Shown here: positions 18,586-30,883 of the stretch, one piece after another
How the letters are laid out: every line of letters starts with the position of its first letter
Position numbering within the stretch: the stretch's first letter is position 1
Source: Thiothrix sp.
GTDB taxonomy: Bacteria > Pseudomonadota > Gammaproteobacteria > Thiotrichales > Thiotrichaceae
Length of the DNA: 34,737 nt
Assembly (NCBI GenBank): GCA_020442915.1
Contig: JAGRJD010000111.1
Coordinates: forward strand, 1 to 34,737
Direction: 5' to 3'
Notes under the pieces: generated by a model
What the model saw: only the letters and a program-made list of their open reading frames with translations
Database searches by the model: none
What the model was told of the DNA's origin: nothing
Translations under genes and position numbers: made by a program

Positions 18586-20382
18586 ATGCCATTCTCTGCC
18601 TTCTCCAGTTTCCCGGGAACCACACGGGGAAGTAACGGTTTTCAGTCTGCAGTCAACCCGCAACGTCCGGTGACAAATGGTGGCGGGCTATCGGGCCTGT
18701 TTGGTAACGGCCCCGGCAATGGTAACGGATTCTCCGGTTTCGGCAGTGGCAGTCATGGCATGGAAAGCATGCTCACCATGCTGATACTGCAGCTGGTGCA
18801 GCAATTACTGCAGCAGATGCTGAACCAGTTCCAGCCGACACCGGCACCAACGCCAGTGCCGACACCGGCACCAGTACCCGCCCCGGCCCCGGATTACCGC
18901 TCCATTGATGGCACCGGCAACAACCTGCTGCACACCGAATGGGGTTCAACCGAAGAGGGGCTGGCCCGGGTAGCCACTCCCGATGATACCCGGCTGACCG
19001 ATACCGCACTCGCCAGTGCCCGTGAGATCAGCAATGCCGTATCGGCCCAGAGCGGCAATACCGTGAATGACAAGGGGCTGAGTGACATGTTCTGGCTCTG
19101 GGGCCAGTTTCTGGATCATGACATCACCCATGTCAACAGCAGTGATGAGGGGGAGCGTGCTGACATCGCCGTACCGACAGGTGATCCCCAGTTTGATCCG
19201 TTCGGTACCGGCACGGTCAGCCTGCAGTTCAATCGCAGTGATGCCACCACAGGGGCCGACGGACAGCGCGTGCAGGCCAACAGCATTACGGCTTTTCTTG
19301 ATGGCTCCAATGTGTATGGCTCGGATGCGGAAACTTCCAGTAACCTGCGGGAGTTCACGGGGGGCAAGCTGAAGATGAGTGAGGCGGGCATGATGCCTGC
19401 CGATACGCAGGGGCAGTATATGGCCGGCGATACGCGTGCCAACGAGAATCCCGGTCTGACCTCCATGCATACGCTCTGGGTTCGGGAACACAATCGCATC
19501 GCGACGGAGCTGGCGGCCCAGCATCCGGACTGGAATGATGAAACCCTGTTCCAGGAGGCACGTACCCGGGTTGTGGCCGAGATGCAGGCGATTACCTACA
19601 ATGAATTCCTGCCCAACCTGCTGGGCGAAAATGCACTGGGTACCTATCAGGGGTATGACCCGGATACCAATCCCGATATCGGTGCCGAGTTTGCTTCGGC
19701 AGCCTACCGTTTCGGCCATTCCATGCTGTCTTCCACTTTTTTACGCCTGGATGAAAGCGGGCAGGTGGTTCCGGAGGGCAACCTGACATTGCAGGATTCC
19801 TTCTTCAGGCCGGACAAGGTGGCGGAAACCGGGGTGGATGCCATTTTCCGGGGCTTTGCCTCACAGACAGCCCAGGCTGCTGATCCCATGGTCATTGATG
19901 ATGTGCGCAACCTGCTGTTCGGTCCCCCCGGTTCCGGCGCAGGACATGATCTGGTGGCACTGAACATCCAGCGCGGGCGCGACCACGCGGTGGGCAGTTA
20001 CAATGATGTCCGCGAACAGCTGGGCCTGCCACGCATCACCAGTTTTGATGATCCGGTCTGGCAAGGGGATTTCGGGCAAAAACTGGCTCAAGTCTATGAT
20101 AGTCCGGATCAGGTGGACCTCTGGGTCGGCGGCATGGCGGAACAGCATGCCGGTGATGCCCTGCTGGGTGAAACCCTGACCACCATCCTGACCGACCAGT
20201 TTCAGGACCTGCGGAGCGGGGACCGTTTCTGGTATGAGAACCGGTTTTCCGGGCAGGCCCTGGAAGACCTGAACAGCCTGCGTCTGTCCGATGTCATCAA
20301 GCGTAATACCGGCGTTGTGAACATTCAGGATAATGTCATGATTGCGTCCAATATTCATCTGCAACAGATTAATCTGGCCTGA
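18586..20382 (+). CDS. Animal-type heme peroxidase, first of a tandem pair
   Basis: The catalytic part (from about residue 104) belongs to the myeloperoxidase/peroxidasin family. Distal residues are in WGQFLDHDITH (Q174, D177, H178). The calcium site TAFLDGS has T235, F237, D239 and S241. R284 and E287 in RANENPGLTSMHT match the mammalian distal Arg and heme-ester Glu. The proximal His is H378 in YRFGHSM, and N460 of LNIQRGRDH matches the His-partner Asn. The methionine that gives myeloperoxidase its sulfonium link is Asn here. The protein has no cysteine and no classical signal peptide. Its N-terminus is Gly/Asn-rich (residues 30-58), then a Leu/Gln amphipathic helix (59-82), then a Pro/Ala linker. 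Export route and substrate are unknown. AGGGAG upstream sets the start; the 225 bases before it hold no gene. Confidence 0.88.
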   Translation: MPFSAFSSFPGTTRGSNGFQSAVNPQRPVTNGGGLSGLFGNGPGNGNGFSGFGSGSHGMESMLTMLILQLVQQLLQQMLNQFQPTPAPTPVPTPAPVPAPAPDYRSIDGTGNNLLHTEWGSTEEGLARVATPDDTRLTDTALASAREISNAVSAQSGNTVNDKGLSDMFWLWGQFLDHDITHVNSSDEGERADIAVPTGDPQFDPFGTGTVSLQFNRSDATTGADGQRVQANSITAFLDGSNVYGSDAETSSNLREFTGGKLKMSEAGMMPADTQGQYMAGDTRANENPGLTSMHTLWVREHNRIATELAAQHPDWNDETLFQEARTRVVAEMQAITYNEFLPNLLGENALGTYQGYDPDTNPDIGAEFASAAYRFGHSMLSSTFLRLDESGQVVPEGNLTLQDSFFRPDKVAETGVDAIFRGFASQTAQAADPMVIDDVRNLLFGPPGSGAGHDLVALNIQRGRDHAVGSYNDVREQLGLPRITSFDDPVWQGDFGQKLAQVYDSPDQVDLWVGGMAEQHAGDALLGETLTTILTDQFQDLRSGDRFWYENRFSGQALEDLNSLRLSDVIKRNTGVVNIQDNVMIASNIHLQQINLA

Positions 20383-20407
20383 GCCGACCGGTTCAGGTAA
20401 CGCCTGA

Positions 20408-20437
20408 AGGGCCGCCCACTCTGCCGGGGGTGGCCCT
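20408..20437 (+). terminator. Stem-loop after the first peroxidase gene
   Basis: AGGGCCGCCC at 20408-20417 pairs with GGGTGGCCCT at 20428-20437, ten pairs including one G-U, with a ten-base loop followed by TTCCATTTG. It lies 25 bases after the stop codon. It may separate transcription of the two peroxidase genes or act as a partial terminator. Confidence 0.6.
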
Positions 20438-20479
20438 TTCCATTTGTCCGGCAAATTCCGGCGTCGGGATTTGGCCGGA

Positions 20480-20508
20480 TTGCAGTAATCCGGAGGAGAT
20501 TCTAGTTT
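20480..20508 (+). promoter_or_regulatory. Candidate promoter of the second peroxidase gene
   Basis: TTGCAG at 20480-20485 and TAGTTT at 20503-20508 are separated by 17 bases. They lie between the stem-loop after the first peroxidase and the start of the second. Together with that stem-loop this suggests the second gene can be transcribed separately. The -10 match is mediocre. Confidence 0.35.
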
Positions 20509-20544
20509 GGATTGGTTAAATAACTTTGTAAGCAGGGATGTTAT

Positions 20545-22380
20545 ATGAGTATCGATTTTTCCGGTTCAGGTATGAATGGCAGGTCTGTGTCCCAGGGACA
20601 GGGCGTTTACGGGAAGCACAGATACGGTGGTGGTTCGTGGAATCCGGGTGGTGGTTTTGGTGGTGGTGGTCTGAACGCTTCGCTGGGTGTTTTGCTGCAG
20701 CAGCTGGTCAGGCTGTTGCTGCAGCATTTTGGCAACCCGCCGGTGACGGAGCCCCAGACCGAATACCGCAGCATTGATGGAAGCGGCAATAACCGGCGTA
20801 ATCCGGAGCTGGGTTCCACGGGGCAGGCCCTGGACAAGTCCCTGGGGAGCGATACTGCCCGCGAGCCGGGGGGGATGACCGAGGTCCGCCTGCCCAGTGC
20901 CCGTGAGGTCAGCAATGCGATTTCGGCCCAGAGCGGTGATACCCGGAACAGCAAGGGGCTGAGTGACCTGTTCTGGATCTGGGGCCAGTTTCTGGATCAT
21001 GACCTGACGCTGGTGCATGCATCGGGCCAGGAGCAGGCGAATGTTGCCGTGCCGGAAGGTGACCCCTGGTTTGACCCGGCAGGTACCGGTACGGCCAGTC
21101 TCGCCTTCACCCGCAGTGATGCCACCATCGGTGCCGATGGCCAGCGTCAGCAGCACAACAGCATCACCGCTTTTCTTGATGGCTCCAATGTCTATGGCTC
21201 CGATGTGGAAACGGCTGCCTCCCTGCGGGACTTTGCCGGTGGCCGCCTGAAGGAAAGCAACGGGAACATGCTGCCAGTGGATGCGACCGGTGCGTATCTG
21301 GCGGGTGATGAGCGGGCCAATGAAAATCCGGGCCTGACGTCCATGCATACCCTGTGGGTGCGGGAGCATAACCGTATTGCGGATGAACTGGCAGCGCAGC
21401 ATCCGGACTGGGGGGATGAAACCCTGTATCAGGAAGCACGGCGCAAGGTGGTAGCCGAGATGCAGGCCATCACCTACAATGAGTTCCTGCCCAACCTGCT
21501 GGGTGACAATGCCCTGCCGCAATACCAAGGCTATAACCCGTCCACTGATCCCGATATCAGCAACGAGTTTGCCTCGGCAGCCTACCGCTTCGGGCATACC
21601 ATGCTGTCACCCCAGTTAATGCGCCTGGATGAGAATGGGCAGGTGATTCCGGAAGGCAACCTGTCCCTGCGTGAGGCGTTCTTCAATCCTGCCAGAGTGG
21701 CCGAAGCCGGCATTGACCCGATCCTGCGGGGCGCGGCTTCCCAGACAGCCCAGGCTGCCGATCCCATGGTCATTGATGATGTGAGGAATTTCCTGATCAG
21801 TGCTCCGGGTTTTGGCGGGCTGGATCTGGTTTCCCTGAATATCCAGCGGGGCCGTGACCATGGTGTGGCCGGGTATAATGATGTGCGTGAGCAGTTGGGC
21901 CTGCCGCGTATCACCAGCTTTGAGGATCCGGTCTGGCAGGGGGATTTCGGCCAGAAACTGTCACAAGTGTATGCCAGCCCCGACGATGTTGATCTGTGGG
22001 TGGGAGGGCTGGCCGAGCAGGCTGCCGGTGATGCCCTGCTGGGGCCGACCATGAGTCATATCCTTGAGAACCAGTTTGTCAGTCTGCGCGATGGTGACCG
22101 CTTCTGGTACCAGAACCAGTTTTCCGGCAACGAACTGAACCAGCTGCAGAACCTGCGCCTGTCCGACATCATTGAACGCAATACCGATATCCAGAACATC
22201 CAGGACAATGTCATGGTTGCCTCCAACGTTCATCTGCAGAATACCGGTACTGCGACGACGAACATGCGCAGCATGGCTGCTCCGGCGGCTGCACTGCAGT
22301 CAGCCCCGCCGGCCCGGCCACTGGATCCGGCGCAGATCCGGCAGCTGCAGGATGCCGCCGCTCAAGGGCTTCTGGGGTAG
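20545..22380 (+). CDS. Animal-type heme peroxidase, second of a tandem pair
   Basis: This is a close paralogue of the preceding gene from residue ~74 onward. It keeps D151 and H152 in WGQFLDHDLT, the calcium residues T208, F210, D212 and S214, R257/E260, the proximal H351 in YRFGHTM, and N432 in LNIQRGRDH. The N-terminus differs: a Gly/Ser-rich stretch (residues 6-44, including GGGFGGGG), then the Leu/Gln helix LLQQLVRLLLQHF (about 50-62), with no Pro/Ala linker. About 35 extra C-terminal residues rich in Ala/Gln/Pro are present. It has no cysteine and no signal peptide. The divergence at both ends and conservation of the core suggest duplication followed by specialisation of targeting. The start has an AGGGA site; an out-of-frame ATG at 20538 is ignored. 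Confidence 0.88.
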   Translation: MSIDFSGSGMNGRSVSQGQGVYGKHRYGGGSWNPGGGFGGGGLNASLGVLLQQLVRLLLQHFGNPPVTEPQTEYRSIDGSGNNRRNPELGSTGQALDKSLGSDTAREPGGMTEVRLPSAREVSNAISAQSGDTRNSKGLSDLFWIWGQFLDHDLTLVHASGQEQANVAVPEGDPWFDPAGTGTASLAFTRSDATIGADGQRQQHNSITAFLDGSNVYGSDVETAASLRDFAGGRLKESNGNMLPVDATGAYLAGDERANENPGLTSMHTLWVREHNRIADELAAQHPDWGDETLYQEARRKVVAEMQAITYNEFLPNLLGDNALPQYQGYNPSTDPDISNEFASAAYRFGHTMLSPQLMRLDENGQVIPEGNLSLREAFFNPARVAEAGIDPILRGAASQTAQAADPMVIDDVRNFLISAPGFGGLDLVSLNIQRGRDHGVAGYNDVREQLGLPRITSFEDPVWQGDFGQKLSQVYASPDDVDLWVGGLAEQAAGDALLGPTMSHILENQFVSLRDGDRFWYQNQFSGNELNQLQNLRLSDIIERNTDIQNIQDNVMVASNVHLQNTGTATTNMRSMAAPAAALQSAPPARPLDPAQIRQLQDAAAQGLLG

Positions 22381-22434: not shown

Positions 22435-22950
22435 TCAGGATGCCGAGCGTTGCAGGGCATTCAGTCCGGCACTGATGCCCATCAGCGATAATGGCAGCTG
22501 GACCTGCCGGCTATCTGCCTGTCCCTGGTAACTGACGGTGGCCCTGCGTCCTTTTCTGAACTGGGCCAGTATTTTCTGGTCCAGTGCAAAGCCCGCCGTG
22601 CAGCGGGTTTCATTGCACTGTCCCTGAAACCGGATCGGGGCCTGATTGTCGACCTGCAGTGTGATGCCGTTCTGGATGGCAATATCTTTGGGCAGCTCAA
22701 AAAAAATGGTCGGCATGGGCTTGCCGGGCGCATAGCCGATGACCGTGATCATCAGGGGCTGGTCATTGTGGCTGAGCACCTGCTCCAGATAGCAGATATT
22801 GCGGTTGTATGCCCCGGCCTCACAGTTGCCTCCCCAGTCCTGGAAACGCTGGCCCTGCAAGGATGCCATGGCGGGCGGGCTGAGTGCCGTGATTCCACAG
22901 GCCAGCAGCAGCGGGATGTACGGTAAAAAGCGAATGTTGGCAAGTACCAT
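22435..22950 (-). CDS. Invasion-associated locus B (IalB)-family exported protein
   Basis: The 171-residue protein has an N-terminal hydrophobic signal sequence (about residues 6-29, ending near AMA). The mature part has the IalB pattern: FQDWGGNCE with a Cys, a second Cys about ten residues later (NICYLEQVL), then FFELPKDIAIQNGITLQVD, the Cys pair QGQCNETRC, and PLSLMGISAGLNAL near the end. IalB proteins are periplasmic; the name comes from Bartonella, but most members occur in free-living bacteria and their role is unclear. The four mature cysteines probably form two disulfides. The gene is convergent with the peroxidase pair and followed upstream by a diguanylate cyclase on the same strand. 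Any functional link to the peroxidases is only positional. Confidence 0.75.
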   Translation of the reverse strand: MVLANIRFLPYIPLLLACGITALSPPAMASLQGQRFQDWGGNCEAGAYNRNICYLEQVLSHNDQPLMITVIGYAPGKPMPTIFFELPKDIAIQNGITLQVDNQAPIRFQGQCNETRCTAGFALDQKILAQFRKGRRATVSYQGQADSRQVQLPLSLMGISAGLNALQRSAS

Positions 22951-29047: not shown

Positions 29048-30883
29048 ATGCGCACTGGTCTCAAAATGCTGTTGGCCGGGATTATTTTCGGTTTTATGGC
29101 TGTTTTCGCTTTTATTGGGGTAAAAAGCCTGATTAATGACCAGCAGAAAAGTCAGGTCCGGGTTCAGCCGCCGGATATTGAGACCAGTACGATTCTGGGT
29201 CAGTCGGCTCCGGCTGCCGGCAGTACGGAGGGAGCCAATCCTTCGCTGGCTGATCAGGATGCCACGGCAGTGGCAGATGACAGCAAGGTCAGGCCGACCC
29301 TGGTGGGTGAGCCTGATACCCCGGACACGATCAGTGAGCCGGAGAATACGGCCTCCCAGACCCCGCCGGCAGCGGGCGCTGATACCGGCATTGATGCCGG
29401 ACCGGCTGGCACAGGGTCGGCCACGGATCCGGCTGCTAATACCGGCAATGCTGTTGTCAATACGGATACCGACCCGGTGGCAGGTACGACTGCTGCGTCA
29501 CAGGATCAGACTGGCAGCAGCGGGGAGCTGATCGACGAATACGGGGCGCTGGAATTGAGCCTGACCGATCCTGCCGACCCGCAGCGCAAGCCCAGTGCCA
29601 CGTTCATCATTCGTGATGTGCAGGATATGGAAGTGGCCAGCATGGAAAACACCGATTCCGCCACCTTTGACCTGACGCCGGGCATTTATGAGGTCACTGT
29701 GGTGGCTGAAGGTAAAAAGAATGCCCGCATGGTGGAGATTGCAGCAGATCAGGTGCTCAGGGAGCGCTTCGAGCTGCCCAATCCGCCGGTATCCGCAGCC
29801 CCGGAGCAGAGCAGCCTGCCGGTGCCATCAGGGCCGGTTGCCGGTACGTCGGAGCAGCCGGTTTCGACTCCGGTTGTCGCGGCGCCTGATCCGCTGGCAG
29901 CGGATACCGGCCGGGTGAGGGTATTCGTGCGTGCCGGGGGCAGTAATGCGGCGCTGAAGGCCAACGTCTATGTTCAGCAGCCCAACGGGGTGCATGTGGC
30001 CAAGGGCAGTTACGCCGACAATGTGGAATTCACCCTGCCGCCGGGGCGCTACCGCATCACCGCCAAGACCAAGGGCAAGGAGGATGTGGTGCGTGACATC
30101 AATGTCGCTGGGGGGCAGGAGCAGCAGCAGATTATTGTTATGGAGTCGGCAGCTGCGCAGGCTCCCAACCATCCGGCACCACCACCCGAGGGGACCCTGA
30201 ACCTGGTGCTGCGGTCACCACCGGGTGCTGCCGAGGGGCGGGGGCGCTTTGTGGTGACGGATAGTGGGGGACAACGGGTGGCACGTGTGGGTGGGGTTGC
30301 CAATGCCCAGCTCAGGCTGGCGCCTGGCAGCTATGAGGTCATGGCCGTTTATCGCCAGCGCCGGATCACCAAACGCATCACCATTGCCGAGGGGCAGGCC
30401 CGCTCGCTGGATTTTCAGGTCAGCGAATTTGAGGGGGTTCCGCCCGAGCCACCGGCGCGTCCGCCTGCCGGAGGGCAGTCGGCTCCGCAGCAGACGGCAC
30501 AGCAACCCTCACAACCGGCTGCTCAGGTACCGTCCCGGAGCGGCGTGCTGCAACTGATTGCGGTCAATGGGGTGGACCAGCAGCCGCTGCCGGTGAGTTT
30601 TTCGGTGCTGGCCCTGAATGGTCAACTGCTGCGCAACTTTGAGGGGGTGGCATTTGCCGAGCTGAGCATGGCACCCCAGGACGTGCTGGTGAATATTGAT
30701 TACCGCGGCATGCATGGCCAGGAGCGCATCCGCGTGACGCCTGGTGAACCCACCGTGTTTACTTTCACCATCACCCCGAACAACGTGGCCAATCCGGTGG
30801 GACAGCAGCCCCAGCCGCCCCAGTCGCTGGAGGGGCTATTGATGGACCGCCTGCAGCAGGAGCTGCAGCGCCACATGCGCTGA
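29048..30883 (+). CDS. Membrane-anchored protein with four repeated beta-rich modules
   Basis: The 611-residue protein has one N-terminal membrane helix (about residues 7-27) after a short basic start, so the rest is probably periplasmic. Residues 35-160 are a low-complexity Ala/Asp/Thr/Pro linker. Four copies of a module of about 78 residues follow, at roughly 165-243, 288-365, 382-458 and 498-576, separated by Pro/Gln-rich linkers. Each runs: a hydrophobic strand, then a central strand ending in a turn ([64 protein letters not shown]), an Arg-containing strand, and a closing strand ending in F or V. This resembles small immunoglobulin-like or carboxypeptidase-regulatory-like beta-sandwich domains. 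There are no cysteines. The function is unknown. The protein lies between the acetyltransferase and hemL, without an obvious partner. Confidence 0.75.

What the first reader, a model, noticed from the sequence alone, without database searches (positions are those of the whole stretch)
18586..22380. Tandem pair of cysteine-free animal-type heme peroxidases with non-classical N-termini
Seen: two adjacent genes share a peroxidase core that keeps distal His, distal Arg, proximal His-Asn, the calcium site and both heme-ester acidic residues (D177/E287 and D151/E260). Neither protein has a single cysteine. Neither has a signal peptide. Known: mammalian relatives depend on many disulfides and secretory signals. 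Inference: these are a bacterial branch adapted for a disulfide-free setting or a special export route, possibly producing hypohalous acids or acting in defence.
Basis: partly seen in the sequence, partly recalled or inferred. Interest (0 to 1): 0.8.

Follow-up and report, generated by a model that had tools for sequence, protein, structure and literature searches.

The report
Peroxidases with a type III export leader
A filamentous sulfur bacterium carries two white-blood-cell-type peroxidases whose odd front ends match those of a transglutaminase and other matrix-type proteins found almost only where a type III secretion machine exists, suggesting that this 'injection' machine is used to build the bacterium's outer coat.

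Summary
In detail: two adjacent genes (pxA, pxB) encode complete, cysteine-free, lactoperoxidase-type enzymes without Sec signals. Absence of cysteine is ordinary: 33 of 46 peroxidase cores from other bacteria also have none. The N-termini are the real find. They share a module: an Asn/Ser/Gln/Gly-rich, acid-poor start, a ~20-residue Leu/Gln amphipathic helix, then a linker. In the family (Thiotrichaceae) peroxidase presence tracks a non-flagellar type III secretion system (T3SS): 21 of 22 peroxidase genomes have it. The one exception (G013) uses classical Sec signal peptides instead. The same leader precedes a transglutaminase encoded inside the T3SS locus in several species (elsewhere in this genome), an acetylesterase here, and collagen-like, SdrD-like and Tyr/Gln-repeat proteins in relatives. 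In one genus the peroxidase gene follows the T3SS operon. A leader profile hits 16 of 25 T3SS genomes, none of 11 without, and 2 of 183 other gammaproteobacteria; the strong one of those has the same T3SS lineage. Most likely: heme peroxidases exported unfolded by a T3SS, then cross-linking or oxidising the extracellular matrix together with the transglutaminase. Export by T3SS is inferred (about 0.7); the cross-linking role is more speculative (about 0.4). Nothing was tested experimentally.

The parts
18586..20382 (+). pxA: animal-type heme peroxidase, 598 aa, cysteine-free, upstream copy, no C-terminal tail
18586..18894 (+). pxA N-terminal leader (residues 1-103): Asn/Ser/Gly-rich start, Leu/Gln amphipathic helix (profile match 18763-18837), Pro/Ala/Thr/Val linker
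   Evidence: scores 13.5 bits with an HMM trained only on T3SS-locus/transglutaminase leaders
18895..20340 (+). pxA peroxidase domain (PF03098)
20545..22380 (+). pxB: animal-type heme peroxidase, 611 aa, cysteine-free, downstream copy
   Evidence: structure model
20545..20760 (+). pxB N-terminal leader (residues 1-72), helix residues 45-62 (profile match 20674-20742)
   Evidence: not recovered by the hold-out HMM (-0.8 bits)
20764..22215 (+). pxB peroxidase domain (PF03098)
22219..22377 (+). pxB C-terminal tail ending in a short predicted helix and a G-x-L-G carboxy terminus, conserved in downstream or single copies of related genomes, absent from upstream copies
22435..22950 (-). IalB-family secreted protein (PF06776), next to the peroxidase gene here and in Thiothrix eikelboomii and a Thiothrix MAG
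29048..30883 (+). Membrane-anchored, Gln/Pro-rich protein with CarboxypepD_reg/PEGA-like repeats; its relatives lie directly downstream of the peroxidase pair in three related genomes

Best explanation
pxA and pxB are catalytically complete lactoperoxidase-type heme peroxidases that reach the cell exterior through a non-flagellar T3SS (encoded elsewhere in this genome, contig C74), not through Sec. An N-terminal leader (polar, acid-poor start plus Leu/Gln amphipathic helix plus flexible linker) acts as export signal and/or chaperone or docking site. It is a portable module shared with a transglutaminase, an acetylesterase, and collagen-like, SdrD-like and Tyr/Gln-repeat proteins. Outside the cell the apo-enzymes fold, bind Ca2+ and heme, and with H2O2 oxidise tyrosines or halides, most likely cross-linking or hardening the sheath or extracellular matrix alongside the transglutaminase. 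Shown: genes, domains, intact motifs, leader sharing, co-occurrence and linkage with the T3SS. Inferred: actual export, heme loading outside the cell, and the cross-linking role.
For: Own genome has SctC-N0, D, J, K, Q, R, S, T, U, V, N, O on contig C74. Peroxidase versus T3SS across 36 family genomes: 21 both, 1 peroxidase only, 4 T3SS only, 10 neither, Fisher p 4e-5. The exception, G013, has Sec signal peptides on both its peroxidases. In G015 and G032 the peroxidase gene lies about 0.5-1.2 kb after the T3SS operon's last gene, with one gene on the opposite strand between. A transglutaminase (PF20085, E 1e-25) with the same leader lies inside the T3SS locus between SctC and SctQ. This genome's transglutaminase carries a leader and Pro-linker of the same kind as pxA's, and an acetylesterase here carries it too. 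First 25 residues: polar fraction 0.51 versus 0.28 in neighbours, p 9e-10. An HMM trained only on the transglutaminase/T3SS-locus leaders scores 15 of 26 peroxidase leaders, counted from the listed scores, at or above the best of 250 background genes (p 5e-12; p 3e-6 against shuffled leaders). Leader profile hits at E<=0.01: 16/25 T3SS+ genomes, 0/11 T3SS-, 2/183 other gammaproteobacteria. The strong one, G197, carries the same T3SS lineage (SctV 54% identical; SctC, D, N, O alongside). No canonical type I HlyD above cut-off in this genus.
Against: No secretion or activity was measured. The helix is short and low in complexity; pxB's own leader is missed by the hold-out HMM. Training sequences were part of the profile used. 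Related genomes are not independent; by genus the contrast rests on g1, g6 and the T3SS-free g5 and g7. Some relatives have RTX repeats between leader and peroxidase, usually a type I secretion mark. The T3SS SctC is only an N0/N1 fragment without the secretin barrel, so the outer-membrane step is unclear. The window's own peroxidases are not next to the T3SS. Heme acquisition outside the cell is unproven.
Confidence: 0.62

Rival explanations
1. The leaders are type I (RTX-style) secretion substrates: export by an ABC exporter with a C-terminal signal, the N-terminal helix being only a multimerisation or anchoring element.
For: RTX repeats sit between leader and peroxidase in G015, G017, G021, G032, G034; alphaproteobacterial relatives have long C-terminal extensions; pxB has a conserved C-terminal helix and GxLG end.
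Against: No HlyD of type I class above cut-off in the window's genus, only in G028 and G033; pxA and other upstream copies have no C-tail; the leader tracks the T3SS and is found on proteins inside T3SS loci.
Confidence: 0.13
2. The peroxidases are cytoplasmic or released by lysis; the leader is a targeting or assembly helix for an intracellular compartment, and the T3SS link reflects shared lifestyle only.
For: No recognised signal peptide; heme is available in the cytoplasm.
Against: No encapsulin in the genome. Ca2+-site peroxidases of this superfamily act outside the cytoplasm (established knowledge). G013 relatives carry Sec signals. The leader is shared with collagen-like and SdrD-like proteins, which are extracellular types.
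Confidence: 0.12
3. T3SS export is right but the enzymes are effectors or weapons (hypohalous acid or oxidative attack on eukaryotic predators or competing microbes) rather than matrix cross-linkers.
For: Bacterial RbMPO makes hypohalous acids and kills E. coli (PMC10204396); T3SSs usually inject effectors; one leader protein here (contig C68) has a HExxH motif.
Against: No translocon genes recognised in the conserved locus; partner proteins look like matrix builders and modifiers: transglutaminase, collagen-like, SdrD-like, acetylesterase, Tyr/Gln repeats.
Confidence: 0.2

Closest known systems
Bacterial peroxidases of the peroxidase-cyclooxygenase superfamily (LspPOX, Cyanobacterium TDX16 peroxidase 8s6c, Rhodopirellula RbMPO)
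   Same: Fold, heme-ester Asp/Glu, distal and proximal residues, Ca2+ loop, few or no cysteines
   Different: N-terminal leader and T3SS association; relatives outside use Sec signals, RTX/dockerin or planctomycete N-terminal motifs
Pseudomonas putida PepA (PP_2561)
   Same: Bacterial animal-type peroxidase with experimentally shown peroxidase activity (PMC3396595)
   Different: Two-domain protein with calcium-binding inserts; no such leader is described in the passages read
Harpins and harpin-enzyme fusions of plant-associated T3SSs (e.g. PopW, HrpW: harpin region plus pectate lyase)
   Same: T3SS-secreted, polar/Gly-rich, Cys-poor region with Leu-rich helix fused to an extracellular enzyme (harpin traits: PMC6945534, PMC3571957; fusions from my own knowledge)
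   Different: No Pfam harpin match in the leaders even at E 10; host is an environmental sulfur oxidiser; cargo is a peroxidase or transglutaminase
Sea-urchin ovoperoxidase and animal egg-coat transglutaminases
   Same: A peroxidase of the same superfamily and transglutaminases cross-link secreted matrix proteins during coat hardening (PMC3528131)
   Different: Eukaryotic granule exocytosis rather than T3SS; an analogy of function only

Membership tests
Animal heme peroxidase (PF03098, MPO/LPO-like) | Full-length domain above curated cut-off | tested here: met
   519 and 539 bits over all 530 positions (cut-off 25)
Animal heme peroxidase (PF03098, MPO/LPO-like) | Distal Gln/His/Arg, proximal His-Asn, Ca2+ loop, ester Asp and Glu | tested here: met
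   motifs; invariant or nearly so over 40 sequences
Animal heme peroxidase (PF03098, MPO/LPO-like) | Fold match to solved members | tested here: met
Animal heme peroxidase (PF03098, MPO/LPO-like) | Heme binding and peroxidase activity | not testable with these tools
   Needs protein
Substrate of a type III secretion system | Sec-independent, polar, acid-poor, unstructured N-terminal 25 residues | tested here: met
Substrate of a type III secretion system | A complete non-flagellar T3SS in the same genome | tested here: inconclusive
   Export apparatus and inner rings present; SctC lacks the secretin barrel, needle only tentatively assigned
Substrate of a type III secretion system | Genetic linkage to T3SS or co-occurrence with it | tested here: met
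   linkage in genus g8; co-occurrence
Substrate of a type III secretion system | Secretion lost in T3SS mutants | not testable with these tools
   Needs genetics
Harpin | Match to Pfam harpin families | tested here: not met
   Leaders have no harpin hit at E up to 10
RTX/type I secreted peroxidase | C-terminal RTX repeats and type I exporter genes | tested here: not met
   No RTX in pxA or pxB; no HlyD over cut-off in the genus

The most novel reading that the evidence does not exclude
A lineage of non-flagellar T3SS in filamentous sulfur bacteria (and at least one other gammaproteobacterial family) is not an injectisome but a secretion system for an extracellular matrix toolkit: heme peroxidase, transglutaminase, carbohydrate acetylesterase, and collagen-like, SdrD-like and Tyr/Gln-repeat structural proteins, all addressed by one portable Leu/Gln-helix leader that may itself be a transglutaminase (Gln) substrate.
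Probability: 0.4. Interest if true: 0.9.

Novelty: new variant of a known kind. Interest (0 to 1): 0.74.

Why it matters
If right, a machine known mainly for injecting effectors into eukaryotic cells serves free-living sulfur bacteria to lay down and cure their outer coat, with an animal-type peroxidase and a transglutaminase as in egg-coat hardening. It gives a testable role for bacterial animal-type peroxidases, whose physiology was called 'completely unknown' for the peroxicin family (PMC4420034). It also gives a portable leader for finding T3SS cargo in environmental genomes, and bears on filament formation and bulking in wastewater plants, where Thiothrix-type bacteria are common (PMC11355018).

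Tried and rejected
Cysteine-free core as the novelty: rejected, common in relatives. Encapsulin cargo: no encapsulin gene. Type I secretion: no HlyD over cut-off in the genus. Hidden upstream signal peptide: ORFs open only a few codons upstream. Pfam harpin domain: no match. T3SS secretin family search alone was ambiguous (mostly other secretins) but led to the C74 locus. Papers holding both Thiothrix and type III secretion: five, only with incidental mentions by title and count (not read); none holding T3SS with heme peroxidase and transglutaminase. Promoter/terminator scan of the pair: nothing above chance. A HExxH-bearing leader protein on contig C68 resembled an M91 peptidase by eye but has no such Pfam match.
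Full report
What is there. The window lies in a 4.08-Mb, 97% complete genome (G000). A genome of the same genus (G004) matches Thiothrix eikelboomii ATCC 49788 by its 67,366-base contig (NCBI places this species in Thiotrichaceae). Around the finding the genes are ordinary: MocR, fumC, hisAF, tatC, gpmI, rph, rdgB, purU and typA upstream; IalB, a diguanylate cyclase, a histone-deacetylase-like enzyme and an acyl-CoA ligase downstream. Between typA and ialB lie pxA (18586-20382) and pxB (20545-22380), both full-length PF03098 peroxidases, with 0 cysteines and no Sec signal.

Enzyme part. The Met that forms the sulfonium bond in myeloperoxidase is Asn, so the type is lactoperoxidase-like. The pxB model (pLDDT 84.9) matches Cyanobacterium TDX16 peroxidase 8s6c (TM 0.90 by target, 48% identity) and myelo-/lactoperoxidases. 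Relatives occur in Planctomycetota, Verrucomicrobiota, Mycobacteria, Alphaproteobacteria and a cyanobacterium. Their cores are mostly cysteine-free: 33 of 46 with none, maximum 4, against 23 of 25 with none in the Thiotrichaceae.

The N-termini are the unusual part. Outside the Thiotrichaceae, relatives often carry Sec signals, dockerins or the planctomycete LExRxLLA-type motif. In the Thiotrichaceae they begin with a polar, acid-poor stretch (M-x-x-I-x-N is common), then a Leu/Gln amphipathic helix of about 20 residues, then a linker, sometimes RTX repeats. Residues 2-26 are 51% Asn/Ser/Gln/Thr/Gly against 28% in 252 neighbouring genes (p 9e-10).

Link with type III secretion. A search for secretins led to contig C74 of the same genome, which holds a non-flagellar T3SS: SctN, V, U, T, S, R, Q, O, D, J and K, a T3SS_needle_E-like gene (annotated in relatives), and an SctC that is only the N0/N1 part. 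The same locus with the same order is in T. eikelboomii (L126), G028 (L124) and G033 (L127). Across 36 family genomes, 21 have both the peroxidase and the T3SS, 1 the peroxidase only, 4 the T3SS only and 10 neither (Fisher p 4e-5, not corrected for phylogeny). The single exception (G013) carries classical Sec signal peptides on both peroxidases. In genus g8 (G015, G032) the peroxidase gene follows SctC-D-I-J-K-L, with one opposite-strand gene between.

The leader is portable. In the T3SS locus of several species a protein with the same leader lies between SctC and SctQ. Its body is a transglutaminase of the Bacillus spore-coat type (PF20085, E about 1e-25). In this genome that place holds a 103-aa leader protein, and the transglutaminase sits on C143 with a leader and Pro/Ala/Thr/Val linker of the same kind as pxA's. 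A profile of 21 helices found further carriers: a SASA-type acetylesterase in this genome and several copies in G011; QPVYG-repeat proteins; a 1398-aa collagen-like protein (PF01391, 2e-151); a 1008-aa SdrD-B-like protein (PF17210, 8e-124); EF-hand/DUF6174 and propeller-like proteins.

Controls. Profile hits at E<=0.01 are in 16 of 25 T3SS-positive and 0 of 11 T3SS-negative family genomes (p 6e-4); training sequences inflate the first number. Among 183 other gammaproteobacterial genomes only two hits appear. The strong one, G197, from another family, is a leader + RTX + EF-hand + DUF6174 protein, and that genome carries SctV (54% identity to ours, against 34% for its second, FlhA-like copy) with SctC, D, N and O alongside. 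This was a prediction made by the leader and then tested. In a hold-out test an HMM built only from transglutaminase/T3SS-locus leaders ranks 15 of 26 peroxidase leaders (counted from the listed scores) at or above the best of 250 background genes. Other bacterial peroxidases score nothing, and shuffled leaders score lower (p 3e-6). pxA ranks first; pxB does not pass.

Mechanism. The best-supported chain is: leader recognised by the T3SS; unfolded apo-peroxidase exported (lack of cysteine and disulfides is convenient but not diagnostic); folding with Ca2+ and heme outside; oxidation of tyrosine or halides with H2O2. A transglutaminase, an acetylesterase and structural repeat proteins with the same address make a matrix-building toolkit plausible. 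Thiothrix filaments have a pronounced mucous sheath and form rosettes and gonidia (PMC8570282, PMC11355018). Peroxidase and transglutaminases cross-link animal egg coats (PMC3528131). The steps after export are inference.

Tandem pair. The tree puts pxA and pxB as sisters (100/99), apart from the pairs of G001, G003 and G008. So there were two tandem duplications, or gene conversion in this lineage. Consistently the downstream copy keeps, and the upstream copy lacks, a C-terminal tail ending in G-x-L-G.

Limits. No experiment; related genomes not independent; low-complexity leader; several genomes are fragmentary MAGs; the outer-membrane step of this T3SS is unexplained.

Noticed in passing
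G000:C74 (L096:8846-9493 -), L126:11688-12338, L124:8308-9015, L127:9176-10006, L116:1690-2382: The SctC of this T3SS lineage is only a 215-276-aa N0/N1 fragment (with a DUF4124 tail in the own genome) without the secretin barrel, in all genera looked at; the outer-membrane channel must come from elsewhere or be absent.
   Followed up: partly
G004:C29 (L163), G006:C15 (L164), G009:C27 (L207): Small leader proteins with repeated 'QPVYG' units (Gln and Tyr in each repeat), candidate substrates for both transglutaminase and peroxidase.
   Followed up: partly
G033:C1:2749100-2753300 (L208): 1398-aa collagen-like protein (PF01391) behind the same leader helix.
   Followed up: partly
window 22219-22377 and relatives L004, L005, L006, L007, L009, L010, L011, L012: Conserved C-terminal tail with a short helix and G-x-(L/I)-G carboxy end on downstream or single-copy peroxidases; function unknown.
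   Followed up: partly
window 29048-30883; L033, L034, L009: Membrane-anchored CarboxypepD_reg/PEGA-like protein lies directly downstream of the peroxidase pair in three relatives but about 6.7 kb away here.
   Followed up: partly
L015, L019, L020, L021, L023, L213, L218: RTX nonapeptide repeats placed between a T3SS-linked leader and the enzyme domain, an unusual position for RTX repeats.
   Followed up: partly
G000:C68 (L176): Leader-type protein with a HExxH motif (MGHEFAHAS) and no Pfam match; possible secreted metalloprotease.
   Followed up: no
L116:8029-8706 -, L117, L120, L036: A conserved ~225-aa protein with signal peptide and a HEIFHAL-type motif recurs beside leader peroxidases in genera g3 and g8.
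   Followed up: no
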